The notes under the pieces: generated by a model | The model's database searches: none | What the model was told of the DNA's origin: nothing | What the model saw: only the letters and a program-made list of their open reading frames with translations | Part shown: positions 59 through 35,034 of the stretch, piece after piece | Numbering within the stretch: position 1 is the first letter of the stretch | Layout: the number at the start of each line of letters is the position of its first letter | NCBI GenBank assembly: GCA_021769135.1 | Contig: JAETTM010000015.1 | Coordinates: 1 to 64,000 of the forward strand | Source of the DNA: Lachnospiraceae bacterium | GTDB lineage: Bacteria; Bacillota; Clostridia; Lachnospirales; Lachnospiraceae | DNA length: 64,000 nt | Reading direction: 5' to 3' | Program-made: the position numbers and the translations under genes

Positions 59-271
59 GTGGACCAATCTGAAAATATGGATGCATTGCTGGATTTTCTG
101 TACCAGGCAATGTTTACAATTGCTCCAAAAGGGTATAGCCCTAAAGAAGTAGATATGTTTATTGAAGAATTAAAGGATCAATGTTGTGCATGGAGCAGGA
201 AATATACGGAATTACAAAAAGAACTTCAGGAAATGAAGGAGGGAAGAAGAAATGTCGATGCTTCAGGTTAA
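59..271 (+). CDS. Small DivIVA-like coiled-coil protein
   Basis: About 70 residues; not an established named gene. The stretch GYSPKEVDMFIEEL followed by a charged helical run resembles the N-terminal segment of DivIVA/GpsB proteins, which bind curved membrane and recruit wall-synthesis factors (family knowledge). It lacks the long coiled coil of full DivIVA. GTG 59 is preferred because gggggagg ends nine bases upstream; GTG 50 would lie directly against that site, and ATG 77 is a further in-frame option. The 3' end overlaps the VTC gene by 20 bases, suggesting translational coupling. By context it may place the downstream envelope machinery in the cell, which is inference. Confidence 0.6.
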   Translation: MDQSENMDALLDFLYQAMFTIAPKGYSPKEVDMFIEELKDQCCAWSRKYTELQKELQEMKEGRRNVDASG

Positions 272-938
272 AAGGCAGGAGATTAAATATCCCATTTCAC
301 TTCTTGAGTATAAAAAGCTGGAAAAAAAGTTAAAAGCGTGCATGTATCAGGACGAACATGCGGGAAGCGATGGCATGTACAAGGTAAGAAGCCTATATTT
401 TGACAGCCCATCGGAAAAAGACCGAATGGATGTATTGAGAGGATGTGAAAAACGCCATAAGATTAGGCTGCGTATATATTCGCTGGATGACCCTGCTGCG
501 AAATTAGAATTAAAAGCAAAAGAGGGCCGTTTTCAAAGAAAAAGCTCGCTGATTGTGTCGAGGGAAGAAGCAAAAGAGCTGATTTCGGGGAAATACGACT
601 GCCTGAGAGAGCAGGGCACCGAAATGGCAGAGCATCTGTATATGGAACTGAGACAGGGGATGTACCGTCCGCGGGTGCTGATGGAATACGACAGGGCTGC
701 CTTTTATCTTCCGTCAAAAGATATCCGGGTTACCTTTGACTGGAATGCGGCTGCCAACCGTGTTAATACGGATTTATTCGCAGAGGATATCTGTTGGATT
801 CCTTTGCGCCCATCCAGCGTCGGAGTTTTAGAAGTGAAATTTAACGGGTATTTATTCAGCTACATACAAAATTTATTGGAAGGCGTGAATAAGCTTCCGG
901 CCATGAATGGTAAATACATTTATGCATGTAATATTTAA
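252..938 (+). CDS. VTC-domain polyphosphate polymerase-like protein
   Basis: 228 residues matching the VTC/CYTH-like tunnel-fold family (polyphosphate polymerase domain), which in yeast Vtc4 makes polyphosphate from ATP. Visible features are RQEIKYP at the start, LYFDSP near residue 48, basic strands with RHKIRLRIY, KLELKAKEG, then RPRVLMEYDR and VLEVKFNGYLF, giving the alternating Arg/Lys/Glu pattern that lines the tunnel. ATG 252 has aaggagg nine bases upstream. There is no membrane segment, so it is probably cytosolic and works with the DUF4956 membrane protein that follows 21 bases later. Bacterial homologues are commonly found beside CotH and DUF4956 genes. Whether it makes polyphosphate or modifies another polymer is not shown by sequence. 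Confidence 0.85.
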   Translation: MSMLQVKRQEIKYPISLLEYKKLEKKLKACMYQDEHAGSDGMYKVRSLYFDSPSEKDRMDVLRGCEKRHKIRLRIYSLDDPAAKLELKAKEGRFQRKSSLIVSREEAKELISGKYDCLREQGTEMAEHLYMELRQGMYRPRVLMEYDRAAFYLPSKDIRVTFDWNAAANRVNTDLFAEDICWIPLRPSSVGVLEVKFNGYLFSYIQNLLEGVNKLPAMNGKYIYACNI

Positions 939-959
939 TGATGGAGGAAATGACTGGAA

Positions 960-1637
960 ATGAGAGAGCAGATTTTGAATTATATGGCGCAGCAGCAGGC
1001 GATTGAACCGACGCAGCTTATTTTTAACATGACGGTTGCAGTGGCCTTGGGCATCATTATATTTATTACGTATCGTTTAACTTATTCAGGTGTCGCATAC
1101 AGCAAGAAGTTTAATGCTTCACTGATGATGATGACATTGGTGTCTACGTTAGTCATGACTGTAATTTCCAATAATATAGCATTGTCTCTTGGTATGGTGG
1201 GCGCATTGTCCATCGTCCGTTTCCGTACGGCAATCAAGGATCCGAGAGATACTACGTTTATTTTCTGGTGTATTGGAGTGGGAATCTGCTGCGGGGTTTC
1301 ATTTTATACGGTGGCTGCAGTGGGATCGGCATATATTTTTGCAGTTATGGTCGTTTTGGGACGGGTACATACCGTTGAAAAAAGATTGCTTCTGGTAAGG
1401 GCAGGGCGCGCAGCGGAAAAGGACATAGAGTCAGCTGTGTATCTATATTTAAAAAAGGTGGAATTGCAGGCAAAGGACACTACGGGAGACGAGGTGGAGT
1501 ATATTTACATTCTTTCCGATAAAACGCTGCAGCGTGCCCAGAAAATTAATGAGGATTCGATTACGGATAAATTGTATGCGATCGAGGGCGTGCGGATGGT
1601 AAACCTGGTTGCGCAAAATGATGATATGAGCTACTGA
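960..1637 (+). CDS. DUF4956 family membrane protein
   Basis: 225 residues. The N-terminal half has three to four hydrophobic helices (about residues 20-42, 50-72, 98-116 and 120-138), with the family hallmark GALSIVRFRTAIKDPRDT between helices 2 and 3. The C-terminal 85 residues are soluble and mixed alpha/beta. DUF4956 proteins have no established biochemistry but regularly accompany VTC-domain and CotH proteins. ATG 960 is preceded by ggagga. Its TGA overlaps the DNA just before the CotH gene, consistent with one transcript. A role as membrane partner or channel for the VTC polymerase is inference from neighbourhood. Confidence 0.85.
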   Translation: MREQILNYMAQQQAIEPTQLIFNMTVAVALGIIIFITYRLTYSGVAYSKKFNASLMMMTLVSTLVMTVISNNIALSLGMVGALSIVRFRTAIKDPRDTTFIFWCIGVGICCGVSFYTVAAVGSAYIFAVMVVLGRVHTVEKRLLLVRAGRAAEKDIESAVYLYLKKVELQAKDTTGDEVEYIYILSDKTLQRAQKINEDSITDKLYAIEGVRMVNLVAQNDDMSY

Positions 1638-1651
1638 TGGAGGGATGGCAA

Positions 1652-3109
1652 ATGAAAAAATTGATCCCTTACATCTGTGTTGTGGTTTGTGGGCTTATCA
1701 TCGCAATCGGTGCAGAGATATTTTTCCCCCAGAAAGAAACGAGAATCTGGCACCACGAAACAGAAGGCCTGGAGTATTGCGAAAATACAAAGCAGGGTGA
1801 ATTTTGTACCCATTTGCCCCTTGTAATCATCGATACGAAGGGCCAGGAATTGGATTTTGTTACAGAGGTTCTGGCTTCGATGAAGATTATCGACCAGGAG
1901 GGCGGGCACAATCACTTGGACGGCGAAGCCTCAATGGAAACGGATATGCTGATTAAAATGAGAGGAAATTCTTCCAGCCGTTTTGACAAAAAGCAATATC
2001 GTTTGACATTTGTGGATGCCAGCGCTTATGGGAAAGAAACGACAAATCTTCAACAGCTGGAACATGTATCGTACAAAATCATGGGGATGCCATCGGAGTC
2101 GGAATGGGTATTGAACGGCCCTTTTTTGGATAAGACGCTTATCCGAAACTACTTAATGTACAATCTGTCGGGGGAAATCATGGAGTGGGCTCCCAATGTG
2201 CGTTATTGCGAAGTGTTTCTAAATGGAGAATATAAAGGCGTATATCTCATGCTTGAGACCGTAAAAGCGGATAAGGACAGGGTAAATCTGGCAGTGCTGA
2301 ACGGGAAGAATACGGGCACTGATTATATGGTCGCAAGAGAAAGGGCGGGCGATACGTCATATCCGTTGGATAATTTCGGAACGTATGCCGGAAAGACATA
2401 CAATGAACTGGGAATTGTTTATCCGGGCGCCAGGTCAGGAAGAACGGCCGAGCAGCTTGAATTTATCCGCCAGGACATAGGCGCGGCGGAAAAAATGCTG
2501 TATTCGCTGGACTACGATGACCAGAAAATAGGATATAAATCAGCGATTGATGTGGATTCCTTTGTGGATTATTTTATTTTGAATGAATTTGCGCTGAACG
2601 TGGATGGCGGCGGCCTTTCGACCTATATGTATAAAAAAGTGCGTTCCGGATTTACAATGGGGCCGGTCTGGGATTTTAACAACGGATTTGACAACTATGA
2701 ATATTATTCCCTCAGAGAAGACGAGTTTTACATGATTACAAAACCATGGTATGTAATGCTGCTGCGGGATGAGGAATTTGTGGAGCAGATTATTAACCGC
2801 TATAGTCTGCTGCGGCAGGGGGTATTGTCGGAGGAAAGGATCGATAAAATAATCGATGATACTATTGGGTTTTTAGGGCCGGCGATTGAAAGGAACGACC
2901 GGATTTGGGGGTATTCTTATCAGGACGGCTGGCTGGACAATTTAGACATGAAACTGCAGCCATTAGACTATGACAGAAATCCGGAAAATTATGAGGAAGC
3001 GGTTGAACAGCTGAAATCCTGTATTCACAGGCGAGGTGAATTCCTGGATAAAAATATACATGTGCTGCGCCAGTTTTGTGCGGAGTCAAAAGTAAAGGAA
3101 TGGAATTAA
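1652..3109 (+). CDS. CotH family kinase-like protein, membrane anchored
   Basis: 485 residues starting with a single signal-anchor helix (about residues 4-22), then an extracellular CotH domain. CotH proteins are atypical secreted protein kinases, first described for Bacillus spore-coat assembly. Visible motifs are KMRGNSSSRFDKKQYRL near residue 102 (nucleotide-binding loop region), NGPFLDKTLIRNY, and GPVWDFNNGFDNY near residue 338. The third residue of the metal-binding WDF(D/N) motif is Asn instead of the more usual Asp, so activity cannot be assumed. ATG 1652 is chosen because ggaggg lies seven bases upstream; an ATG at 1637 overlaps that site. Likely substrates would be surface proteins or glycans made by the same operon (inference). 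Confidence 0.85.
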   Translation: MKKLIPYICVVVCGLIIAIGAEIFFPQKETRIWHHETEGLEYCENTKQGEFCTHLPLVIIDTKGQELDFVTEVLASMKIIDQEGGHNHLDGEASMETDMLIKMRGNSSSRFDKKQYRLTFVDASAYGKETTNLQQLEHVSYKIMGMPSESEWVLNGPFLDKTLIRNYLMYNLSGEIMEWAPNVRYCEVFLNGEYKGVYLMLETVKADKDRVNLAVLNGKNTGTDYMVARERAGDTSYPLDNFGTYAGKTYNELGIVYPGARSGRTAEQLEFIRQDIGAAEKMLYSLDYDDQKIGYKSAIDVDSFVDYFILNEFALNVDGGGLSTYMYKKVRSGFTMGPVWDFNNGFDNYEYYSLREDEFYMITKPWYVMLLRDEEFVEQIINRYSLLRQGVLSEERIDKIIDDTIGFLGPAIERNDRIWGYSYQDGWLDNLDMKLQPLDYDRNPENYEEAVEQLKSCIHRRGEFLDKNIHVLRQFCAESKVKEWN

Positions 3110-3130
3110 GGGAAGAGGAAAGTTGAAATT

Positions 3131-5263
3131 ATGAAGCGTTTTCTGATAACCTGTACGGCAATAATCATTCTGGCAATTGCGGGGGCATACGTTGTTTTAT
3201 ATACTTCTTTTACTCCATTTTCAAAATTGGATGATGAGCCGGAATATTTTATGAAAGTAAAAGGAAAAGAGATTTTTCAGATGGCGGGAGGGAAGGAAGA
3301 AGTATTTGAAATAAAAGGGGTCGATTTAGGGGCTGGAATACCCGGAGCGTTCGCAACAGAGTTTGCCATCGATTATGACATGTATTTGGAATGGTTTAAG
3401 CTGATTCAGGAAATGAATGCCAATGTAATCCGGGTGTATACGATTTCTGACCCGGAGTTTTATCATGCCTTTTATGACTACAATGCGGATAATCCGAATC
3501 CGCTGTATCTGCTTCATGGCGTGTGGGTAGACGACGAGGTAGTCCGGGGAGCAAATGATGCTTATGCGGACCAGTTTATTCATGTGTTTTATAAAGACTG
3601 TGAAAAACTGGTAGACGTCCTCCATGGACGAAGAAACATCTGGTATAACAGCCGGCATGGCTATGGAGCCTATAAATGGGATGTTTCGCAATGGGTTGCC
3701 GGATATATTCTCGGAGTGGAATGGGATCCGGACGTCGTTCTTTATACCGATGATATCCGGGAGTACATGGCCTCCTTTGAGGGAGAATTTTTATATACGG
3801 ATGGGAATGCCTCCGCCTTTGAGGCGATGCTGGCGCGGGTTGGCGACAGATTGCTGACATATGAGATGAGAAAATATGGGGAACAGAAGCTGCTTGCATT
3901 TTCCAACTGGCCGGAAACAGATCCGCTGGACCATGAGCAGTGGAGGCTGGAACAGAACACAAATCTGGCGAAAATAGATGTGGAGCATATCCATGCAAAA
4001 GACAAACTGAAGACGGGAATGTTTGCGTCATATCATATTTACCCGTATTATCCCGCATTCCTTGATTTCGAAGAAAAATATGCCGGTTATGTGGACGAAA
4101 AGGGGGAAAACAATCCATATCAGGGATATTTGAAGGAAATCAACAGGCACCATACCGTGCCGGTAGTGGTTTCGGAGTTTGGCCTCCCGTCTTCCAGGGG
4201 AATCGCAAGAATTAATAAAGCCAGGGGGATGGATCAGGGAAATTTAAGCGAAGAGGAACAGGCAAAACGGCTGAAAATTCTGTATAAGGATATCAAGACC
4301 GCGGGATGTGCCGGCGCAGTAGTCTTCGCATGGCAGGATGAATGGTTTAAACGGACCTGGAATACATGGCCGGGCGTGGATTTGACAAGAAACGCCTATT
4401 GGAGCGATTATCAGACGAACGAACAGTCCTTTGGACTGATTACCTTCGATCCCGGCGAAGAAAAAAGCGTCGTCTATATAGATGGCAATGTGGAAGAATG
4501 GGAAGATGTTCCATGGATTATTCGGGATGAGGACAGCGGCCTGCAGGCGGCATATGATGAAAAGTTTGTCTATTTTCATGCCTATATTAAGAATCTGAGC
4601 GAGGGCGATGTGATATATCTGCCTGTAGATATTACGCCGAATTCGGGCGCATATAAAGAAGCGGAGAGCGGGCTGGAATTTGAACAGCCGGTAGATTTTC
4701 TGATTCGTCTGGATGGGGAAGACAATTCCGTTATGCTGGTGCAGGAATACTACGATATACTGTTTGCGACAGAACGCAGGGAAATCTGGGAGGAGGATGC
4801 GTTTATTCATCCTCCGGAGAAAGACTCGCAGAAATTCAATCTGATTCAGCAGTTTTTAAGAGGAAAAGTCATGATGCTGAATGGAGAAGTGCTGGAACCC
4901 TGGCTTTTTCCCACCGGGGAACTGCTGCATGGGAACGCGAATCCGCAAAATGAAGATTTCAATTCCCTGGCGGACTTTTTTATTGAGGGAAATCATATAG
5001 AACTGCGGATTCCGTGGACGATGTTTAACTTTTCGGATCCATCGCAGATGCGTATCCATGATGACTATTATAAGCATTATGGAGTGGAAGAGATAAAAAT
5101 AGACAGTATGGATATTTCCATGCAGATTTTGCATGATGGCCAAAACAGCGTGAAGCCTTTCGGAACGCTGAAGCTGAGGGGCTGGGGAAATCACCCCACA
5201 TGGCATATGAGGCTGAAAGCCTCTTATTATGCCATGCAGGAAGCATATGAGGAGGTGGAATAA
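3131..5263 (+). CDS. Membrane-anchored glycoside hydrolase-like protein (TIM barrel plus beta domain)
   Basis: 710 residues with an N-terminal signal-anchor (about 3-25) and no cleavage motif. Residues about 55-430 look like a clan GH-A TIM barrel: NANVIRVYTI, then GVEWDPD where an acid/base Glu would lie, and PVVVSEFGLPS near residue 345 where the nucleophile Glu would lie. The remaining 280 residues begin at VVYIDGNVEEW and look like an all-beta carbohydrate-binding or DOMON-like module. It follows the CotH gene by 21 bases and abuts the HEAT gene. Activity on an extracellular polysaccharide is inferred. It could instead be a non-catalytic partner that guides a polymer made by the glycosyltransferase two genes on. 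Confidence 0.7.
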   Translation: MKRFLITCTAIIILAIAGAYVVLYTSFTPFSKLDDEPEYFMKVKGKEIFQMAGGKEEVFEIKGVDLGAGIPGAFATEFAIDYDMYLEWFKLIQEMNANVIRVYTISDPEFYHAFYDYNADNPNPLYLLHGVWVDDEVVRGANDAYADQFIHVFYKDCEKLVDVLHGRRNIWYNSRHGYGAYKWDVSQWVAGYILGVEWDPDVVLYTDDIREYMASFEGEFLYTDGNASAFEAMLARVGDRLLTYEMRKYGEQKLLAFSNWPETDPLDHEQWRLEQNTNLAKIDVEHIHAKDKLKTGMFASYHIYPYYPAFLDFEEKYAGYVDEKGENNPYQGYLKEINRHHTVPVVVSEFGLPSSRGIARINKARGMDQGNLSEEEQAKRLKILYKDIKTAGCAGAVVFAWQDEWFKRTWNTWPGVDLTRNAYWSDYQTNEQSFGLITFDPGEEKSVVYIDGNVEEWEDVPWIIRDEDSGLQAAYDEKFVYFHAYIKNLSEGDVIYLPVDITPNSGAYKEAESGLEFEQPVDFLIRLDGEDNSVMLVQEYYDILFATERREIWEEDAFIHPPEKDSQKFNLIQQFLRGKVMMLNGEVLEPWLFPTGELLHGNANPQNEDFNSLADFFIEGNHIELRIPWTMFNFSDPSQMRIHDDYYKHYGVEEIKIDSMDISMQILHDGQNSVKPFGTLKLRGWGNHPTWHMRLKASYYAMQEAYEEVE

Positions 5264-6358
5264 GTGCTTGTTTCTTTTCATGAAGGCTACTGGCTGTTAG
5301 TGGAGCTGTGCGCGCTGTTTTGTGTGCTGACAATGGCTTACAATCTATATGAGCATTTAACGAGGAAAAGCCGCAGCAGGATACAGGGGAGGCGGACGGA
5401 ATCTTTAAAGGAATTATTGAGTACATATGCCGAAAGCCAGGGTGAGAACCGTAAAAAATGCTATAAAAAGTTTTCAAGGATTTTAAACAGGCCAAACGGA
5501 GTGCTTGCATTGATGGCGGCGCTTAATGAAATGGGATGGGATGAAAGCGGCCATATGGAACCCGTTACAAGAAGGCTTCTGTGCGAGCTGCTGACAGAGA
5601 AATATATTCATGTCTATCAAAAAGAAGACGAATCGGTGCAGGGAATGCTGATTTCTCTGCTTATCCGCTGCGATGCTTCATCCAGCAGATTGAAACAGCT
5701 TCTGTTAAAGAATCTGGAGGCGGAAAATTTACTTGTACGTATTGAAACAATGCGCTGTATTTCAGCACAGAGGAACCGAAAGCTGATGCTCCAGGCGCTG
5801 GAATGTATTCATCGGCAGCCGCAGTATTTCAGCAACAAGCTCCTGACGGATACGCTCATCGAGTTTCAAGGGGACCGGGAAGCATTGATGGAGGAATTGT
5901 GGGAGAGCCGGGAAACGTATTCTCCCAGTATTCAGATTTCCATCATCCAGTTGATGGCAATTATAAAAGAAGAAACGTTTGCAGAGCGAATCTATGAAGT
6001 GGTAAAGGATCAGGAGGCCGATAAAGAGATTCGGATTGCCGCATTAAAATATTTTCAAACGGTTCTCAGGCCGGAATATATAAAGACATTTGCGGAATTT
6101 GTGACGGAGCCGTTCTGGGAATACGGGGCTGTGGCCGCAAATGTTTTAAGGAGCTACGATTGTACTGGAGTTTTTGAACAGCTGCTTAAGGGATGCGCAA
6201 GCAGGAACTGGTATATCCGAAATAATTGTGCAAGAACGATTGTGGAGTGCTGCAGCCGGCAGCAGATTGAACAGGCGATGTGCGTGGAGGACCGCTATAG
6301 CCAGGACAGTATCCGGTATGTGTGGAAAACAATGGGGAGAGAGGGGCAAATAGCATAA
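5264..6358 (+). CDS. Membrane-tethered HEAT-repeat protein
   Basis: 364 residues, GTG start with an aggagg site about ten bases upstream, immediately after the stop of the preceding gene. One N-terminal transmembrane helix (about 8-27) is followed by roughly 300 residues of paired amphipathic helices typical of HEAT/ARM repeats, for example EIRIAALKYFQTVL and WYIRNNCARTIVECC. There are no catalytic motifs. HEAT proteins act as scaffolds. Its TAA shares the base A of the next possible start (TAATG), placing it in direct coupling with the glycosyltransferase, so an accessory role for the synthase at the inner face of the membrane is a reasonable inference. Confidence 0.75.
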   Translation: MLVSFHEGYWLLVELCALFCVLTMAYNLYEHLTRKSRSRIQGRRTESLKELLSTYAESQGENRKKCYKKFSRILNRPNGVLALMAALNEMGWDESGHMEPVTRRLLCELLTEKYIHVYQKEDESVQGMLISLLIRCDASSSRLKQLLLKNLEAENLLVRIETMRCISAQRNRKLMLQALECIHRQPQYFSNKLLTDTLIEFQGDREALMEELWESRETYSPSIQISIIQLMAIIKEETFAERIYEVVKDQEADKEIRIAALKYFQTVLRPEYIKTFAEFVTEPFWEYGAVAANVLRSYDCTGVFEQLLKGCASRNWYIRNNCARTIVECCSRQQIEQAMCVEDRYSQDSIRYVWKTMGREGQIA

Positions 6359-6455
6359 TGAATGAACATTTACGCACGATTGTTGAGTTTGCAAATTTCT
6401 TTTTTTCGTTGTTTTTTATACGGCATTTTTATTCCTTTCCGTAATTTACGGGGCC
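6358..6455 (+). other. Frameshifted N-terminal segment of the glycosyltransferase (T7 run)
   Basis: ATG 6358 overlaps the preceding stop (TAATG) and encodes MNEHLRTIVEFANFFF, then runs out of frame to a stop about 80 bases on. From 6387 the frame of the glycosyltransferase is open without a start and encodes a hydrophobic helix (LFFVVFYTAFLFLSVIYGAV). The two join perfectly if one base is gained inside the run of seven T at 6400-6406. The apparent real product therefore begins at 6358 and has an N-terminal membrane helix. Causes could be sequencing error, phase variation or slippage. Confidence 0.7.
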
Positions 6456-7823
6456 GTGGAAAGTGAAAAGAGGGAAAGGCAAAATATATTCCATAAAGGA
6501 ATCAGCGTAGATCATGCGATTAATTATGTGCCGATTTCTGTTTTGATTCCTGCCTATAATGAAGAACTGACGATTTTGGATACGGTAAAGTCATTGTGCG
6601 TACTGGATTATCCGGAATTTGAGATAATTGTAATTGACGATGGATCAAAGGACAGGACTGCGGAAATTCTAATCCATGAGATGGAGCTGAAAAGGACGGA
6701 GCGCCCAATCCGCCGGCAGGTCCTCTGCCAGGAAATGACAGAAATATATGAGACCGTGTATTCGGGGCATTCGATTACGCTTGTCCGCAAGAAGAACGGC
6801 GGAAAAGGGGATGCGCTGAATATGGGGATTAATGTGTCAAGGTATCCCTATTTCCTTAGTTTGGACGCGGATTCCGTGCTTCAAAAGGACGCTCTGAAAA
6901 AAATGATTATGCCAATCCTTTCTGATTCCAGAGTAATCGCTGTCGGCGGAATGGTGCAGGTGGCCAATGAAATGATTATTGAGGATGGGGAGATTAAAGA
7001 ATTCCGTTTTCCACGGAAATTTGTCGTTTTGATGCAGATGCTGGAATATTCGCGTACTTTTATGGCAATGCGGATGTTTCTGGATTCCTTCAATAGCAAT
7101 CTGATTATTTCAGGAACCTGTGGATTATTCCGAAAAGATATGGTGATTCAGACGAATGGGTATAAAACGGATACTGTGGGAGAGGATATGGAACTTGTAG
7201 TAAAGCTGCACGCGTATTGCAGGAGCAAAAAAGTTCCGTATAAAATCGCTTATGCGCCGGATGCCATTTGCTGGACACAGGTTCCGTCCAGGCTGAGAGA
7301 TATGAAAACCCAGAGAAGGCGGTGGCAGATGGGGCTGATGCAGAGTCTGTATACACATCGGATGATTTTATTTAATCCGCTGTACGGTGTAATGGGAGTG
7401 TTTTCAACCCTGTATTACCTGATGGTGGAAATGCTGGGGCCGTTTATCGAATTTTTAGGCGTTATGGTCATCTGTCTTGCGGCAAGGCTGGAAATGCTGA
7501 ACGTATCGTTTATGCTTTGGTATTTTCTGCTGTTTTATCTTTTGAGTACGCTGATTACGATTACTGCATTTTTCACAAGAGTGTATGTGCTGCGGGCTCC
7601 GCTGACCGTCTGGCAGGCTATCAAGGTGGTAGTACTGTCTTTCGTGGAGTCGTTTGTTTTTCATCATTTGGTTACGCTCTTCCGTCTGACTGCATTTATA
7701 AACTACAGAAAAACAAAGTTACAGTGGGGAAGGATTCAAAGACAGCAACATAACCATTCGGACAACTATGAGGAGGGAGCGGGGCATGGACAAAGAAAAG
7801 AAAGAAAGAAACAGAAAAAATGA
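6456..7823 (+). CDS. Processive family 2 glycosyltransferase, membrane synthase
   Basis: 455 residues from GTG 6456, although the natural start is probably ATG 6358 in another frame (see the T7 feature). It carries all motifs of processive GT2 synthases of the cellulose/hyaluronan/PNAG type: IDDGSKD near residue 60, LDADS near 135, GEDMELV near 241 and QRRRW near 285, followed by several transmembrane helices (about 308-330, 335-360, 365-388, 400-425). Such enzymes polymerise a UDP-sugar and extrude the chain through the membrane. The C-terminal tail is His/Lys rich. The last 38 bases overlap the alkaline phosphatase gene. Which sugar is used cannot be read from sequence. Confidence 0.88.
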   Translation: MESEKRERQNIFHKGISVDHAINYVPISVLIPAYNEELTILDTVKSLCVLDYPEFEIIVIDDGSKDRTAEILIHEMELKRTERPIRRQVLCQEMTEIYETVYSGHSITLVRKKNGGKGDALNMGINVSRYPYFLSLDADSVLQKDALKKMIMPILSDSRVIAVGGMVQVANEMIIEDGEIKEFRFPRKFVVLMQMLEYSRTFMAMRMFLDSFNSNLIISGTCGLFRKDMVIQTNGYKTDTVGEDMELVVKLHAYCRSKKVPYKIAYAPDAICWTQVPSRLRDMKTQRRRWQMGLMQSLYTHRMILFNPLYGVMGVFSTLYYLMVEMLGPFIEFLGVMVICLAARLEMLNVSFMLWYFLLFYLLSTLITITAFFTRVYVLRAPLTVWQAIKVVVLSFVESFVFHHLVTLFRLTAFINYRKTKLQWGRIQRQQHNHSDNYEEGAGHGQRKERKKQKK

Positions 7824-9249
7824 AGGAAACAGAAAAAGTTTCCGTTTATCTTTACAACCGGGAATTATAGTTTTATTGGTAAGTGCAATTTTGATTGGCC
7901 TTTTGGCATTGGGAATCGTTTTCCTTCTGTCGGGATGCGGAACAAAACAAGAGAAACCGAAATATGTATTTGTCTTTCTGGGAGATGGCATGGGAATTAA
8001 TCAAGTAGCCTCCGCCAGATATTGGGAAGCGCAGGAGAGGGAACAATCCGCGGCGGATTCCATCTGGAACGCGTCATCCTTCGATTCCTTCCCAGTCATA
8101 GGAATGATGAGCACCCATAATATGGATTTGACGGTGACGGATTCCGCTGCGTCTGCTACGGCGCTGTTCACAGGAAAAAAGACGGGCAATGGCTCTTTAA
8201 ACTATAATCCGGTTACGAAAGAATGGTATGTGCCCTTTGCGAAAAAACTTTCGGACAACGGTTATGCGACGGGCGTAATTTCCACGACGTCATTGGAACA
8301 CGCATCCCCCGCAGCGCTTTATGCAAATGCGGAAGACCGCTACGATTACCCGGAGATCGCCCGCCAGGGGATTACCTGCGGGTGGCTGGATTTCTGGGCG
8401 GCAGGAGGTTTTTACAGGGAAGAAGAGGAACTTCTGGAAGAAGCGGAAAAAGAAGGATTTACCGTTGTGGATTCGCCGGACGAACTGGAAGGGACGGACG
8501 GGAAGTCTCTTCCCGTTTTGGCTGTGGCAAGAGACGATTTTGCGGCTCCCCATATGGCTTATGAAATTGACCGGGCGCGAAGACAACAGTACGGTGCGCG
8601 GGAGATATCCTTTGCGGATTTGGTAAAACAGGCGGCATCATGCCTGCAGGAAACAGGCAGCTTTTTTCTGTTTGCGGAAGCCGGAAAGATTGACACGGCG
8701 TGTTCCAACCAGGACCTGGTTTCTTCCATACATGAAGTAAAGGGACTGGATGATGCGGTGGCGGAAGCGCTGGTTTTCTATAAGGAATATCCCGAGGAAA
8801 CGCTGATTATAGTATTGGCGGATCATGAGACGGGGAGTCTGCGAATCGGGAGTAAAATAGACGGCAGCGCAATCTCCGGCCAGGTGGCTTCCCGCGTCAG
8901 ATTTGAGAAAATCATGAAAGAGTTGTATGAGGAAAAGGCGGATTTTTCCGAGGCAATGGAGAAAACAGAACATTATTTTGGAATTGCCAAAGAGGATTTG
9001 GATTCGGAGGAACAAGAAGCGTTGAAAGACGCATATGAAGAAACGAAAAAGGGCGCGGAGACGGATGAATTTACGGAGCTGCTTTGCGAAATGAAAGCAG
9101 CACAGGTTAATATGGAATTCGTGTCGGGATCTCACAGCGGCCAGCCGGTTCCGGTGTATGCGATAGGGTGCGGAGCCGAGAATTTTGCAGGAATGTATGA
9201 CAATACGAAAATATATGAAAAGCTAAGCTCTGTTATGGGGCTGCGCTGA
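7786..9249 (+). CDS. Alkaline phosphatase family lipoprotein
   Basis: 487 residues. A very basic N-terminus is followed by a hydrophobic helix and LLSGCG, which reads as a lipobox, so the protein is likely lipid-anchored outside the cell. FLGDGMG near residue 67 and TDSAASATA near residue 117 are the first metal site and the nucleophile serine region of the PhoA-type fold; ADHETG and SGSHSGQPVP supply later metal ligands. ATG 7786 is chosen because aggagg lies nine bases upstream; ATG 7768 in frame precedes that site. It overlaps the synthase gene and ends the cluster before a terminator. In context it may recycle phosphate from phosphorylated surface polymer or polyphosphate (inference). Confidence 0.88.
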   Translation: MDKEKKERNRKNEGNRKSFRLSLQPGIIVLLVSAILIGLLALGIVFLLSGCGTKQEKPKYVFVFLGDGMGINQVASARYWEAQEREQSAADSIWNASSFDSFPVIGMMSTHNMDLTVTDSAASATALFTGKKTGNGSLNYNPVTKEWYVPFAKKLSDNGYATGVISTTSLEHASPAALYANAEDRYDYPEIARQGITCGWLDFWAAGGFYREEEELLEEAEKEGFTVVDSPDELEGTDGKSLPVLAVARDDFAAPHMAYEIDRARRQQYGAREISFADLVKQAASCLQETGSFFLFAEAGKIDTACSNQDLVSSIHEVKGLDDAVAEALVFYKEYPEETLIIVLADHETGSLRIGSKIDGSAISGQVASRVRFEKIMKELYEEKADFSEAMEKTEHYFGIAKEDLDSEEQEALKDAYEETKKGAETDEFTELLCEMKAAQVNMEFVSGSHSGQPVPVYAIGCGAENFAGMYDNTKIYEKLSSVMGLR

Positions 9250-9275: not shown

Positions 9276-9319
9276 AAAGCCCAGTGGTCCGAGTCTTATG
9301 GCTCAAGCCGCTGGGCTTT
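9276..9319 (+). terminator. Rho-independent type terminator after the alkaline phosphatase gene
   Basis: Arms AAAGCCCAG (9276-9284) and CTGGGCTTT (9311-9319) pair perfectly around an inner stem. T-rich sequence follows. It separates the surface-polymer run from the clpS operon. Confidence 0.7.
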
Positions 9320-9344
9320 ATTCAGTGTTTTTCAAGGAAGCGGA

Positions 9345-9373: not shown

Positions 9374-9418
9374 GGACTGCGGTGAATGGTACAGTCTCTG
9401 AAGCAAGGAGTAAAAAAT

Positions 9419-9733
9419 ATGTCGGTACAGGGAGAAACGAAGGAAAAAATAAAGGTAAATATAAGGGAGCCGAAGCATTATCAGGTGATTATGCATAATG
9501 ACGACTTTACTTCCATGGAATTTGTGGTGGAGATTTTGATGAGCATTTTCCATAAAGGGGAGGCGGAGGCGGAAAGGCTGATGCTGATGGTGCATGAGAA
9601 GGGACGGGCTGGGATAGGGGCGTATCCCTATGATATTGCGGTGACAAAGGTCCAGGCGGCGACGGCAAGGGCGCGGGAAGAAGGGTTCCCGTTCCGGATG
9701 ACAGTGGAGGAAGATAATGCATATATCCGTTGA
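9419..9733 (+). CDS. clpS: ClpS adaptor protein
   Basis: 104 residues. ClpS binds proteins with destabilising N-terminal residues and hands them to ClpA(P). The N-degron pocket residues are visible: NDDFT, the gatekeeper Met in SMEFV and the His in MVHEKG. ATG 9419 has aaggag eight bases upstream; ATG 9386 in frame has no such site. The gene overlaps clpA by 17 bases. Having clpS, clpA and aat together indicates a functional Leu/N-degron pathway, which is absent from Bacillus subtilis. Confidence 0.95.
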   Translation: MSVQGETKEKIKVNIREPKHYQVIMHNDDFTSMEFVVEILMSIFHKGEAEAERLMLMVHEKGRAGIGAYPYDIAVTKVQAATARAREEGFPFRMTVEEDNAYIR

Positions 9734-12005
9734 AGTGGCAGAAATTATCAATGCGGTGATGGAATTGGGGAAAAGCGCCCATTTTGAATATGTGACGCCG
9801 GAACTGGCATTGTATGTAATATGTAAAAATAAAGTATTTGCCCAGGCGTTTGAGAACTGCGGCGGGAATGTAAACGAACTGGACTTTAATCTTAGGAATT
9901 ATTTAGAGGAATATATGGATAAGACGGAGACGGAGGAAGATGAGGAAGAGGAACTGTACGTGGGGAATCTTCCGGAACTTTCTCAGGGCATGACGAATAT
10001 GCTGACCCTTGCCTGGGAATCTTCCGAAGGGAGCGGCAGACATTTTGTGGAACTGCCCCATATCATACATGCCATATACGAATTGGAGGAAAGCTACGCG
10101 GCCTACTATATGAAGGCGCAGGGGGTGGAACAGGCGGAGCTTTTGCAGGAAATGGCCATGATATATGAAGAGATAGCCTATGAAAAGGAAGTCGGGAAAA
10201 AAGAAGGGGGAGAGGACGGCGAAAAGGACGGTTCCTCTGAAACAAGAGGGGAAAAGGGATTGTGGAGGCAGTATGCGGTCTGCTTAAACGAGGAATTGGA
10301 GGGGATGAACCCTTTGATTGGCAGGCAGGATGAGCTGGAAAGGACGATGCAGACCCTCTGCCGAAAAGATAAAAACAATCCGCTCCATATCGGCGAACCT
10401 GGGGTAGGGAAAACGGCCATTATGTATGGCCTGGCCAAGCTTTTGAATGAAAATCGGGTTCCGGAGCCTCTGAGAGGGGCGAAAATATTTTCCCTTGATT
10501 TGGGAAGCCTGGTGGCGGGTACCCAGTACCGGGGCGATTTTGAAAAGCGGCTGAAAAGGGTGATGGATAGCATAGCCCATGAGGAAAAACCCATTGTCTA
10601 TATTGACGAAATCCATAATATTGTAGGGGCCGGTGCGGTAAATGGGGGGAGCCTTGATATCTCCAATATGCTTAAGCCCTATCTGGCGGCGGGGCATATT
10701 CGTTTCGTAGGGGCGACCACTTACGGCGAATATAAAAAACATTTTGAGAAAAGCAAAAGCCTGGTCAGGCGGTTTCAAAATATAGATATCAAAGAGCCGG
10801 GAATAGAGGATACTATCCAGATTCTTCAAGGGCTGGAAAAAAATTATGAAGAATTCCACAACGTGGCCTACGAAAACGGTGTGCTGGAATATGCGGCGGA
10901 GATGAGCGCAAAATATATCAACGAAAGGTATCTGCCGGATAAAGCCATCGATTTGATAGACGAAGCAGGCGCCTACCGGAGGCTGCATCCCCTGGGAACC
11001 GGAACGGAGTCCGGGCGGAAGGAGCCGGTGGGAAAAGATGTTATTGATGAAATCCTCTCGAAGATATGTCAGATTCCCAAGCGGACGGTGGAGAGCGATG
11101 AGACGGCATCGCTGGCCACATTGGAGGAACGCTTGAAAAATCGGGTCTTCTCCCAGGAGGAAGCGATAGCGCAGGTGGTGAACGCGGTGAAATTTTCCCG
11201 TGCCGGCCTGCTGGAAGAGGGGAAGCCATTGGCCAGCCTTCTGTTCGTAGGGCCTACGGGCGTGGGCAAAACGGAAATAGCAAGAAGCCTTGCGGAAGAA
11301 CTGGGAATCCGTTTAATCCGCTTCGACATGAGCGAATATGAGGAAAAACATGCGGTGGCTAAGCTGATCGGCGCACCGGCAGGCTATGTTGGCTATGAGG
11401 AAGGCGGCCTGCTGACGGAGGAAATCCGCAAGCATCCCCATGCGGTCCTCCTGCTTGACGAGGTGGAAAAGGCCCACCCGGATATTTACAATATCCTTTT
11501 GCAGGTGATGGACTATGCCACGCTGACGGATAATCAAGGAAGGAAGGCCGATTTCAGGAATGTCATCCTCATTATGACATCCAATGCGGGGGCGAGCCGG
11601 ATAGGGAAACATGGCATTGGTTTTCAGGGGCAGGATGTGAAAGCCGATGTTATTCTGGAAGAAGTAAAGCGCATCTTCCAGCCCGAGTTCCGTAACCGGC
11701 TGAACCGGATTGTAGTATTCAAGGGAATGAATGAAGGGATGGCGGAACGGATTGTGGAGAAGAAACTGGGCGAGCTTGGCCAAATGCTGCGCAAAAAAGG
11801 GGTGGAATTTTCGGCGGATGCCAATGCGAAAGCGCTGGTGAAGGAAAAAGGCATCAGTGTGGAATTTGGCGCAAGGGAGATAGAGCGGGTGATACAGGGT
11901 GAAATTAAGCCGCTTCTTGTGGATGAAATCCTGTTCGGGGCGCTGAAGGATGGCGGGAAATGCCTGCTGACCGTAGGCGACGGCGGGTTTAAGCTTTGCT
12001 TTTAG
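9717..12005 (+). CDS. clpA: ClpA-type AAA+ unfoldase subunit of Clp protease
   Basis: 762 residues, the usual ClpA length. An N-terminal Clp_N domain (about 1-140) is followed by an acidic linker, a first AAA+ module with Walker A GEPGVGKTA near 226 and Walker B VYIDEIHN near 293, and a second module with GPTGVGKTE near 512 and LLLDEVEK near 577. A GIGFQ loop near residue 632 is the tripeptide docking loop for ClpP. There is no M-domain, which separates it from ClpB and ClpC. ATG 9717 is six bases after ggagg and lies inside clpS, so the two are coupled. clpP is not in this window. Confidence 0.93.
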   Translation: MHISVEVAEIINAVMELGKSAHFEYVTPELALYVICKNKVFAQAFENCGGNVNELDFNLRNYLEEYMDKTETEEDEEEELYVGNLPELSQGMTNMLTLAWESSEGSGRHFVELPHIIHAIYELEESYAAYYMKAQGVEQAELLQEMAMIYEEIAYEKEVGKKEGGEDGEKDGSSETRGEKGLWRQYAVCLNEELEGMNPLIGRQDELERTMQTLCRKDKNNPLHIGEPGVGKTAIMYGLAKLLNENRVPEPLRGAKIFSLDLGSLVAGTQYRGDFEKRLKRVMDSIAHEEKPIVYIDEIHNIVGAGAVNGGSLDISNMLKPYLAAGHIRFVGATTYGEYKKHFEKSKSLVRRFQNIDIKEPGIEDTIQILQGLEKNYEEFHNVAYENGVLEYAAEMSAKYINERYLPDKAIDLIDEAGAYRRLHPLGTGTESGRKEPVGKDVIDEILSKICQIPKRTVESDETASLATLEERLKNRVFSQEEAIAQVVNAVKFSRAGLLEEGKPLASLLFVGPTGVGKTEIARSLAEELGIRLIRFDMSEYEEKHAVAKLIGAPAGYVGYEEGGLLTEEIRKHPHAVLLLDEVEKAHPDIYNILLQVMDYATLTDNQGRKADFRNVILIMTSNAGASRIGKHGIGFQGQDVKADVILEEVKRIFQPEFRNRLNRIVVFKGMNEGMAERIVEKKLGELGQMLRKKGVEFSADANAKALVKEKGISVEFGAREIERVIQGEIKPLLVDEILFGALKDGGKCLLTVGDGGFKLCF

Positions 12006-12019
12006 AAAGGAAGAGCGAT

Positions 12020-12670
12020 ATGCCGGTTTATTGTCTGGATAGAGAAAACATTTATTTCCCTGACCCTACGCTGGCCCGGCCGGACGGACTGCTGGCCGTG
12101 GGAGGGGATTTACGCATGGAACGCCTTTTGCTGGCGTATGCCCATGGCATCTTCCCTTGGTATAATCCGGGAGAAAAAATCATGTGGTGGTGCCCGAAGG
12201 AGAGGTTCGTGATTATCCCGGAAGAAATACATGTTTCCCGTTCCATGAAAAAATATATGAAAAAGCATACGCTGCAGATTGCGTTTAACAGAGACTTCGG
12301 GGATACCATGCACCGATGCAGGATAAAGAGGGAATGGGAAGAGGGCACCTGGATTTCCGATGAAATGGAAGAAGCCTATGGGAACCTGCACCGAGCAGGG
12401 TATGCGGCCAGCGTGGAAGCATGGGAGGACGGAGAACTGGCGGGCGGCCTGTATGGAGTTTCCATCGGGAAATGTTTTTTTGGCGAGAGCATGTTTTCGG
12501 AAAAGGAAAATGGCTCTAAAATGGCTTTGATTGGTTTGGCCCGTCTTTTGGAGCAGAACCGTTTTTTATTCATTGACTGCCAATTTCATACGGAACATTT
12601 GGAAAGTATGGGCGGAAAATTTATTTCGTGGGAAAAATATGATAGAATGTTAAGGGGAGGCATATGTTAG
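12020..12670 (+). CDS. aat: Leucyl/phenylalanyl-tRNA-protein transferase
   Basis: 216 residues. Aat attaches Leu or Phe from aminoacyl-tRNA to proteins with N-terminal Lys or Arg, creating ClpS-recognised degrons. Signature segments are FPDPTLARPDGLLAVGGDL, HGIFPWYNPGEKIMWWCP, the GGLYGVSIGKCFFGESMFS block and FIDCQFHTEHLESMGG. ATG 12020 follows gaaaggaag; the frame is open upstream to a TTG at 11996, which would overlap clpA. It closes the operon that makes and degrades N-degron substrates. Confidence 0.95.
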   Translation: MPVYCLDRENIYFPDPTLARPDGLLAVGGDLRMERLLLAYAHGIFPWYNPGEKIMWWCPKERFVIIPEEIHVSRSMKKYMKKHTLQIAFNRDFGDTMHRCRIKREWEEGTWISDEMEEAYGNLHRAGYAASVEAWEDGELAGGLYGVSIGKCFFGESMFSEKENGSKMALIGLARLLEQNRFLFIDCQFHTEHLESMGGKFISWEKYDRMLRGGIC

Positions 12671-15181: not shown

Positions 15182-15411
15182 GGAAGTCCATGCAAGGGCA
15201 GTGGGTTTTGCTGCGGTGTTTTCCGCAGGGCTTTACTAAGCAGAATAGGGAGGCTATGGCGGCGGTCGGGCCGTCTGCAAGTGCCGTCCGTGGCACATGC
15301 AGACTAACTGCGGCATCCATGCCGCAGTTTCCCTGGGGAGTCGATATTCTGCTAAGTAAAGCTCCGGCGGAAAACAATGCAGCAAAACCCACTGCCCTTG
15401 CATGGACTTCC
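15182..15411. repeat. Large imperfect inverted repeat element with two internal hairpins
   Basis: The arm at 15182-15246 (from GGAAGTCCATGC to AGCAGAAT) is nearly the reverse complement of 15346-15411, giving a stem of about 60 pairs with a few mismatches and one-base bulges. The 99-base loop contains two more hairpins: GTCTGCA with TGCAGAC (15273-15304) around GTGCC/GGCAC, and ACTGCGGC with GCCGCAGT (15307-15328). The whole could fold as a cruciform or a stable RNA. It lies 35 bases after the kinase stop and ahead of the padR promoter. It could be a MITE-like insertion, a 3' stabiliser or a structured RNA. Confidence 0.75.
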
Positions 15412-34717: not shown

Positions 34718-35034
34718 TGCTGTGACATGATAGCTGTGAAGCGTGAGGTTGCTGCCCATAGAGGCAGGTTTTTCCGTGGAGCGAATGTCAAGGAGCCGGC
34801 AAGCCGGCGGGAAGAAACTGACGACAAGTCACTGTACAGACAATAATGTTACTTAGCAGTAGTGTAACGGTGTGTGAAAGGCAGGAAGCGGCTGTAAGAT
34901 GGGCTGCGGAATGGCAAAAGGATTTCCTGGGAGAGATGCAGTATTTCATTTAACAGGACACACACGGACGAGTGTACAGTCACCGCTTGTCGTACTTAAG
35001 GATTAAAAAGTGCGAAAAGGAGGCGACTTTTTTT
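34718..35034 (+). promoter_or_regulatory. Long structured leader of the S10 operon
   Basis: This 375-base gap before rpsJ has no gene but shows nested long-range pairing: CGACAAG (34822-34828) with CTTGTCG (34986-34992), TGTACA (34833-34838) with TGTACA (34973-34978), and GTGTGTG (34870-34876) with CACACAC (34959-34965). All three are compatible with one domain of about 170 bases. An upstream part has CTGCC/GGCAG and GCCGGC/GCCGGC hairpins. Autoregulation by a ribosomal protein such as L4 would fit, by analogy to Escherichia coli, but this RNA was not recognised as a known class. Confidence 0.6.

What the first reader, a model, noticed from the sequence alone, without database searches (positions are those of the whole stretch)
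59..9249. Operon-like VTC/DUF4956/CotH/GH/HEAT/GT2/phosphatase surface-polymer cluster
Seen: eight consecutive + strand genes with overlaps or gaps of at most about 30 bases encode a mini DivIVA-like protein, VTC polymerase domain, DUF4956 membrane protein, CotH kinase-like protein, GH-like anchored protein, HEAT scaffold, processive GT2 synthase and alkaline phosphatase lipoprotein. Known: VTC, CotH and DUF4956 often co-occur, but I know of no described system that joins all these to a GT2 synthase and a HEAT protein. Inference: a machine that makes and phosphorylates an extracellular glycan or links polyphosphate to one, with the DivIVA-like protein giving localisation.
Basis: partly seen in the sequence, partly recalled or inferred. 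Interest (0 to 1): 0.75.

Follow-up and report, generated by a model that had tools for sequence, protein, structure and literature searches.

The report
c-di-GMP-linked surface polymer gene cassette
Six of these eight genes form a cassette that many related bacteria keep in the same order, often behind an RNA switch for the signal c-di-GMP, and it most likely makes an exported sugar polymer together with a phosphate-handling module whose role is still untested.

Summary
The cluster is real. Six of its eight genes (VTC, DUF4956, CotH, GH, HEAT, GT2) are a fixed-order cassette: 64 of 80 named loci carry all six in this order, and 14 of the other 16 meet a contig end. The DivIVA-like gene and the alkaline phosphatase were found beside it only here (0 of 80 and 0 of 14 other loci).

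New evidence: among 37 relatives scanned, 13 have a c-di-GMP-I riboswitch just before VTC and one more 1.6 kb upstream. In all 14 a terminator overlaps the aptamer's 3' end, which suggests an ON switch. GGDEF/EAL proteins lie near 45 of 64 full cassettes. GH-HEAT-GT2 is a separable synthase unit, with GH and HEAT fused through a membrane helix in one relative. VTC and DUF4956 are a near-obligate pair (66 of 68 loci) and with CotH a portable triad.

Best reading: a c-di-GMP-controlled, synthase-dependent exopolysaccharide machine with a polyphosphate/CotH module. Polyphosphate as CotH's phosphate donor is speculation. The same gene set was listed in C. perfringens NELoc-2 (2010) but not recognised as a system. 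Caveats: the contig begins 58 bases before gene 1, and the window's GT2 looks frameshifted at its 5' end.

The parts
59..271 (+). mini DivIVA/GpsB-like protein (first start codon in frame at 50; GTG at 59 has the better-spaced ribosome site); overlaps VTC by 20 bases; not part of the conserved cassette
   Evidence: PF05103 E=6.6e-5, below cut-off; 0 of 80 and 0 of 14 other loci carry a relative
252..938 (+). VTC polyphosphate polymerase (tunnel) domain, soluble
   Evidence: PF09359 E=7.6e-30; profile matches yeast VTC4 chains, E=1.3e-7; 16 charged positions invariant in 31 of 31
960..1637 (+). DUF4956 membrane protein with MgtC-like plan: five membrane-length helices and a C-terminal ACT-like domain
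   Evidence: PF16316 E=1.1e-12, MgtC E=5e-4; model pLDDT 88; best Foldseek match MgtC C-terminal domain 2lqj, E=2.5e-4; R87, R89, K93, D97 in 65 of 65
1637..3109 (+). CotH kinase-like protein with N-terminal membrane anchor, predicted outside the cell
   Evidence: PF08757 E=1.5e-57; D323 and D346 in 30 of 30; one hydrophobic helix at 12-30
3131..5263 (+). membrane-anchored clan GH-A-like glycoside hydrolase or transglycosidase with C-terminal beta-sandwich region
   Evidence: model pLDDT 91; best Foldseek match GH157, E=1.9e-14; E349 in 52 of 55, E197 in 51 of 55
5264..6358 (+). N-terminal membrane helix plus HEAT repeats, predicted cytosolic
   Evidence: HEAT_2 E=2.1e-5, below cut-off; helix 8-26; 15 of 200 same-family genomes match, own included
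6358..7823 (+). processive GT2 synthase; open frame from GTG 6456; expected N-terminal helix 6358-6455 lies in another frame (apparent frameshift or sequence error)
   Evidence: PF00535 E=7.7e-28; best NCBIfam PgaC_IcaA 137 bits, below its cut-off of 422; D62, DxD, GED and QxxRW in 22 of 22
7768..9249 (+). alkaline phosphatase lipoprotein, overlaps GT2 by 56 bases; not part of the conserved cassette
   Evidence: PF00245 E=3.3e-55; 0 of 80 and 0 of 14 other loci
9309..9327 (+). terminator-like hairpin closing the operon
   Evidence: consensus match only

Best explanation
A c-di-GMP-linked, synthase-dependent exopolysaccharide machine with an attached phosphate module. GT2 polymerises a sugar nucleotide and extrudes the chain through its own membrane helices. 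HEAT (cytosolic side) and the GH (outer side) form a trans-membrane pair beside the synthase; the GH trims, transfers or holds the emerging chain. VTC polymerises polyphosphate from cytosolic ATP and DUF4956 is its membrane partner, possibly the export path. CotH, anchored outside, phosphorylates a matrix component, the glycan or the GH. In relatives, c-di-GMP switches the whole unit on through a riboswitch. Shown by sequence: gene set, order, conserved catalytic residues, GH-HEAT fusion, riboswitch position and terminator geometry in relatives. Inferred: EPS product, ON direction, membrane sides, polyphosphate synthesis. Speculative: polyphosphate export by DUF4956 and its use by CotH.
For: Six-gene order in 64 of 80 named loci and in 11 of 13 same-family loci fetched (in one, L030, the GH gene is split by an insertion). 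Distances of the six proteins correlate in 15 of 15 pairs over 58 loci, r 0.44-0.91, each above the maximum of 200 shuffles, without correction for shared ancestry. c-di-GMP-I riboswitch before the cassette in 14 of 37 loci scanned, 13 ending within 70 bases of, or overlapping, the leftmost possible VTC start; no other RF01051 match in the 695,432 bases scanned. Terminator overlapping the aptamer's 3' end in 14 of 14 (aptamer structure shown for one). GGDEF/EAL protein within the fetched flanks of 45 of 64 full loci. Natural GH-HEAT fusion with a membrane helix between. VTC within 3.5 kb of DUF4956 in 66 of 68 places. Catalytic positions conserved. Deletion of the DUF4956 and CotH homologues in a streptococcal Pel cluster cut aggregation by more than half in one medium (PMC12345266, section 20).
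Against: No polymer has been measured. In S. intermedius the VTC deletion had no reported aggregation defect although DUF4956 and CotH deletions did, and none of the accessory genes was needed for Pel itself (PMC12345266); this weakens the polyphosphate-feeds-CotH step. 23 of 68 DUF4956-VTC places lack CotH nearby. 23 of 37 loci scanned have no riboswitch; the window's own leader is cut off, and RF01051 and RF01786 searches of its genome found none, though their controls rang nowhere. E349 is lost in 3 of 55 GH rows. The window's own GT2 may be broken. Same-genus genomes lack the cassette (GH in 2 of 16, own included; the other copy is not in a cassette).
Confidence: 0.66

Rival explanations
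1. EPS machine with a regulatory kinase only: CotH phosphorylates a protein to tune synthesis, and VTC-DUF4956 is a local phosphate buffer with no link to the polymer's chemistry.
For: CotH is a protein kinase in spore coats (PMC7821199, passages), and regulation of Pel by CotH was proposed (PMC7112168, passages). VTC deletion had no reported effect on aggregation (PMC12345266). 23 of 68 VTC-DUF4956 places lack CotH.
Against: CotH is predicted outside the membrane, where ATP is scarce (general knowledge); the triad lies in one tight operon in a single GH clade.
Confidence: 0.35
2. The triad modifies or anchors surface proteins generally, and its place beside the GT2 synthase is a shared-regulation convenience.
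For: In a phylum sample 39 of 68 DUF4956 places have VTC and CotH nearby but neither PelG nor the GH cassette, and the window's genome has two such triads, C21 and C15.
Against: Within the cassette clade the pairing has not come apart in 73 of 73 labelled rows; presence and absence need one change on the GH tree.
Confidence: 0.2
3. Spore-coat polysaccharide cluster, by analogy to CotH of Bacillus spores.
For: CotH family name; many hosts are Firmicutes.
Against: The same triad occurs in non-sporulating streptococci (PMC7112168) and in Gordonibacter/Eggerthellaceae MAGs (binning not checked); c-di-GMP control is not a sporulation signal known to me.
Confidence: 0.06
4. Chance neighbourhood of unrelated genes.
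For: None found beyond the two flanking genes, DivIVA-like and phosphatase, which may be exactly that.
Against: Order recurs in 64 of 80 loci.
Confidence: 0.01

Closest known systems
C. perfringens NELoc-2 genes CP4_0460-0468 (Lepp 2010, PMC2879425; table and text passages seen)
   Same: VTC 232 aa, 'tubulin' 226 aa (size and place of DUF4956), CotH 497 aa, hypothetical 685 aa (size and place of GH), HEAT 377 aa, GT2 'chitin synthase' 466 aa, in this order, with a resolvase and a second VTC-'tubulin' pair inside; a later paper adds a polysaccharide deacetylase (PMC11677781, passages)
   Different: Treated as a disease-associated island, not as a polymer machine; matched here by sizes and names only, its sequence was not compared
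Gram-positive Pel cluster pelDEADAFG with accessory CotH, polyphosphate polymerase, DUF4956, DUF4832 (PMC7112168, PMC12345266)
   Same: The same accessory triad beside a synthase-dependent exopolysaccharide; c-di-GMP link in Bacillus cereus
   Different: Synthase is PelF/PelG, absent here; no HEAT protein; a different GH
PNAG/chitin-type GT2 synthases (PgaC/IcaA, chitin synthase)
   Same: GT2 with DxD, GED and QxxRW; best NCBIfam score is PgaC_IcaA (137 bits)
   Different: Far below the family's cut-off of 422 bits; no PgaD/IcaD partner; HEAT and GH partners instead
Yeast VTC complex
   Same: Polyphosphate tunnel domain with shared basic residues
   Different: No SPX domain; membrane part is a separate MgtC-like protein, DUF4956
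GH157 / GH72 beta-1,3-glucan enzymes
   Same: TIM barrel; E349 aligns with E224 of LaGH157
   Different: Profile E=0.0035 and about 11% identity; N-terminal anchor and extra C-terminal domain

Membership tests
Pel cluster | PelG in the same locus | tested here: not met
   No PelG match (PF16933) in the window's genome; 3 of 56 genomes examined are over the cut-off. None of the eight window proteins is a Pel protein by Pfam
Pel cluster | accessory CotH, VTC and DUF4956 | tested here: met
   this is the accessory module, not the synthase
synthase-dependent EPS system (broad kind) | membrane GT2 with processive motifs | tested here: met
   D62, D137xD139, GED, QxxRW in 22 of 22; motif meaning recalled
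synthase-dependent EPS system (broad kind) | c-di-GMP control | tested here: met
   14 of 37 relatives with RF01051 upstream; not visible in the window itself, where the contig begins
synthase-dependent EPS system (broad kind) | an exported polysaccharide product | not testable with these tools
   needs chemistry
PNAG synthase (PgaC/IcaA) | score over the NCBIfam equivalog cut-off | tested here: not met
   137 against 422 bits
VTC polyphosphate polymerase | basic tunnel residues of VTC4 | tested here: met
   K12, R72, R74, K88, R148, R159 align with VTC4 and are invariant in 31 of 31; that these are tunnel residues is recalled
VTC polyphosphate polymerase | makes polyphosphate | not testable with these tools
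   needs enzyme assay
CotH kinase | catalytic Asp228 and Asp251 of B. subtilis CotH | tested here: met
   D323 and D346, same spacing of 23, in 30 of 30; the supporting HMMER stretch scores only -2.7 bits, so the pairing is by pattern and spacing; roles from PMC7821199 passages
MgtC family | membrane part plus ACT-like C-terminal domain | tested here: inconclusive
   MgtC Pfam E=5e-4 but 20.9 bits, below cut-off 31.4; 2lqj best fold match covers the C-terminal domain only
DivIVA/GpsB | score over the curated cut-off | tested here: not met
   23.3 against 28 bits
Alkaline phosphatase PF00245 | score over the curated cut-off | tested here: met
   188 bits against 24.4

The most novel reading that the evidence does not exclude
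VTC and DUF4956 are a two-gene polyphosphate polymerase and exporter, and exported polyphosphate is the phosphate donor that lets the outside kinase CotH phosphorylate a c-di-GMP-induced exopolysaccharide or its GH partner: an ATP-independent phosphorylation pathway on the cell surface, reused beside Pel, beside this GH-HEAT-GT2 synthase, and alone.
Probability: 0.18. Interest if true: 0.88.

Novelty: new variant of a known kind. Interest (0 to 1): 0.62.

Why it matters
It makes sense of an island known since 2010 only as disease-associated genes, shows that it is a widespread conserved cassette, and puts much of it under a c-di-GMP RNA switch. It also shows that the CotH/VTC/DUF4956 triad, said in 2025 not to be found outside Pel loci (PMC12345266, passage), occurs in many other places. 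Where the phosphate for CotH comes from is called an unanswered question for spore coats (PMC7821199); the near-obligate VTC-DUF4956 pair next to CotH gives a direct hypothesis to test.

Tried and rejected
First genome-contig scan with the VTC protein alone found no relative. Searches for c-di-GMP-I and -II riboswitches in the window's own genome were empty, but their 14 control genomes did not ring either, so nothing follows. Sequence search of the accessory TIM-like protein (alignment A1) against solved structures gave only weak hits, best E=0.25. The eLife lipocone paper (PMC12419801), found by a word search, had nothing on this (passages). Pel membership was tested and rejected. The DivIVA-like protein and the phosphatase as core parts were rejected on synteny. 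A functional reading of GH from its fold was kept modest: TM-scores are low (0.36/0.47) and rmsd is 24 over a multi-domain alignment. Literature searches cover only openly licensed PMC papers: 'HEAT repeat' with 'CotH' gave 5 papers, of which the two on C. perfringens are relevant by title and passages; 'CotH kinase' with 'polyphosphate' gave 1.

Selection to bear in mind: the 80 named loci are the best 80 of 276 confirmed by similarity to a triad-type GH alignment, so they favour the cassette. In the phylum sample 23 of 398 genomes match the GH alignment; of the 22 besides the window's own, 19 were fetched as 20 stretches. In those 20 the triad occurs in 1, GH-HEAT-GT2 without the triad in 6, HEAT-GT2 beside GH in another order in 4, and GH without HEAT in 9. 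L153, L164, L165 and L166 were left out of the tree. One search used the 68 DUF4956 places with E of about 2e-15 or better, in 56 of the 92 matching genomes; weaker places were dropped and strands were not compared. Terminators had no shuffled control.
Full report
Observation. Gene spacings are overlap 20, gap 21, overlap 1, gap 21, gap 0, gap 97 and overlap 56 bases. The 97-base HEAT-GT2 gap is out of line with relatives (76 loci: median -4, maximum 29). The other 21 GT2 rows start with a hydrophobic stretch; here a similar stretch is found upstream in other frames, starting from an ATG at 6358 that overlaps the HEAT stop. So the window's GT2 is either frameshifted or wrongly sequenced there. 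The window starts at base 1 of its contig, so the leader is not visible.

What is conserved. A HEAT search of 200 same-family genomes matched 15, own included; one match, L018, is a fragment with stops. Flanks of 13 were fetched. HMMs built from them found the order VTC-DUF4956-CotH-GH-HEAT-GT2 in 11 of 13; L021 is cut by a contig end and L031 has only HEAT-GT2; in L030, counted among the 11, the GH gene is split by an insertion. A GH-alignment scan of genome contigs returned the best 80 of 276 confirmed loci. All six genes in order were found in 64 of 80; of the other 16, 14 have a contig end within 300 bases of the cassette, L092 has VTC and DUF4956 swapped, and L076 lacks VTC and DUF4956 with 1,450 bases of room. 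Record titles include Lachnospiraceae, Oscillospiraceae, Paenibacillus agaridevorans, Holdemania, and Gordonibacter and Eggerthellaceae bins (binning not checked). No relative of the DivIVA-like protein or the phosphatase was found in the 80 or in the other 14 loci. In its own genus only the window's genome has the cassette (GH matches in 2 of 16, own included, the other without the rest), which suggests gain by transfer or loss elsewhere.

Two modules. In a phylum sample the GH alignment matched 23 of 398 genomes. Of 20 stretches fetched from 19 of the 22 others, 1 has the triad, 6 have GH-HEAT-GT2 without it, 4 have HEAT-GT2 beside GH in another order, and 9 have GH without HEAT. One of the 6, L152, encodes GH and HEAT as a single 1,081-residue protein with one hydrophobic helix between them, so the two belong together across the membrane. 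On a GH tree of 97 rows, 73 with the triad and 16 without are separated by one change with support 100; 8 rows were unlabelled because they are cut. It is a quick tree, and the window's GH is a long branch at the base of the triad side. The other module: 66 of 68 well-scoring DUF4956 places in 56 genomes have VTC within 3.5 kb and 44 have CotH within 4 kb; 39 have VTC and CotH but neither PelG nor the GH cassette nearby, 2 have PelG, 2 have the GH cassette. The window's genome itself has two stand-alone triads and a DUF4956-CotH place without VTC. So the statement that these three genes are not found together outside Pel (PMC12345266, passage) does not hold for this sample.

Control by c-di-GMP. 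Rfam scans of 37 relatives (695,432 bases) gave 14 c-di-GMP-I riboswitches, one per locus, all upstream of and on the strand of the cassette: 13 ending from 19 bases inside to 69 bases before the leftmost possible VTC start, and one, L022, 1.6 kb upstream before a polysaccharide deacetylase gene. In all 14 a terminator-like hairpin starts 6 to 14 bases before the aptamer's 3' end and so shares bases with the aptamer's closing helix (helix shown for L045). Binding of c-di-GMP should then hinder the terminator, which makes an ON switch. This is geometry, not measurement, and 23 of 37 loci have no such element. A GGDEF/EAL-type protein lies in the fetched flanks of 45 of 64 full loci, usually right after GT2. 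The window's genome has six GGDEF domains.

Parts and mechanism. GT2 keeps D, DxD, GED and QxxRW in 22 of 22 rows; CotH keeps D323 and D346 in 30 of 30, spaced as D228 and D251 of B. subtilis CotH (PMC7821199, passages); VTC keeps its basic positions in 31 of 31 and matches VTC4. The DUF4956 model (pLDDT 88) has five membrane-length helices and an ACT-like end whose best solved match is the MgtC C-terminal domain; R87, R89, K93 and D97 are in 65 of 65 rows, a charge pattern that could suit a polyanion path (inference). The GH model (pLDDT 91) is closest to GH157; E349 aligns with E224 of LaGH157 and is kept in 52 of 55 rows. I therefore read the cassette as a synthase (GT2) with a trans-membrane HEAT-GH partner pair and a phosphate module (VTC-DUF4956-CotH). 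What the polymer is cannot be told: GT2 scores best, though below cut-off, as a PgaC/IcaA type, and a deacetylase gene is present at L022 and in C. perfringens NELoc-2 (PMC11677781, passages), which hints at an amino sugar, while the GH resembles beta-1,3-glucan enzymes.

Against. In S. intermedius the accessory genes are not needed for Pel; deletion of DUF4956 raised and of CotH lowered Pel and both cut aggregation by more than half in one medium, but the VTC deletion had no reported aggregation loss (PMC12345266, section 20). This speaks against polyphosphate being the sole donor for CotH. Nothing here measures a polymer.

Known before. NELoc-2 of C. perfringens lists the same kinds of gene in the same order (PMC2879425, passages); its authors singled out the VTC-tubulin genes, CotH and a possible chitin synthase, without joining them into a system in the passages I saw. 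I did not compare its sequence. Novelty: a new variant of synthase-dependent exopolysaccharide systems, with a distinct HEAT-GH synthase, a riboswitch and the phosphate triad.

Noticed in passing
9386-12670: clpS, a clpA-like AAA protease gene and aat (leucyl/phenylalanyl-tRNA protein transferase) lie together: a complete-looking N-degron set, which I recall as more typical of Proteobacteria.
   Followed up: partly
6358-6456: Apparent frameshift or sequence error at the 5' end of GT2, in a T-rich stretch.
   Followed up: partly
G000:C21 (L032) and G000:C15 (L033): Two further CotH-VTC-DUF4956 triads in the same genome, with CotH carrying CHB_HEX_C/Fn3-associated domains and no polysaccharide synthase recognised among the neighbours scanned.
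   Followed up: partly
L152:7845-11090: Natural GH-HEAT fusion protein.
   Followed up: yes
L030:9001-14180: Cassette with its GH gene split by an insertion of genes on the other strand.
   Followed up: no
A1 rows, e.g. L024:15270-16298: A conserved accessory protein (FSW ... DVEPYL motif, TIM-barrel-like at best) near 16 of 64 full cassettes; function unknown, possibly a hydrolase.
   Followed up: partly
15214-15379 (-) and 34728-34802 (+): Rfam matches TwoAYGGAY RNA and S10-Clostridia leader.
   Followed up: no
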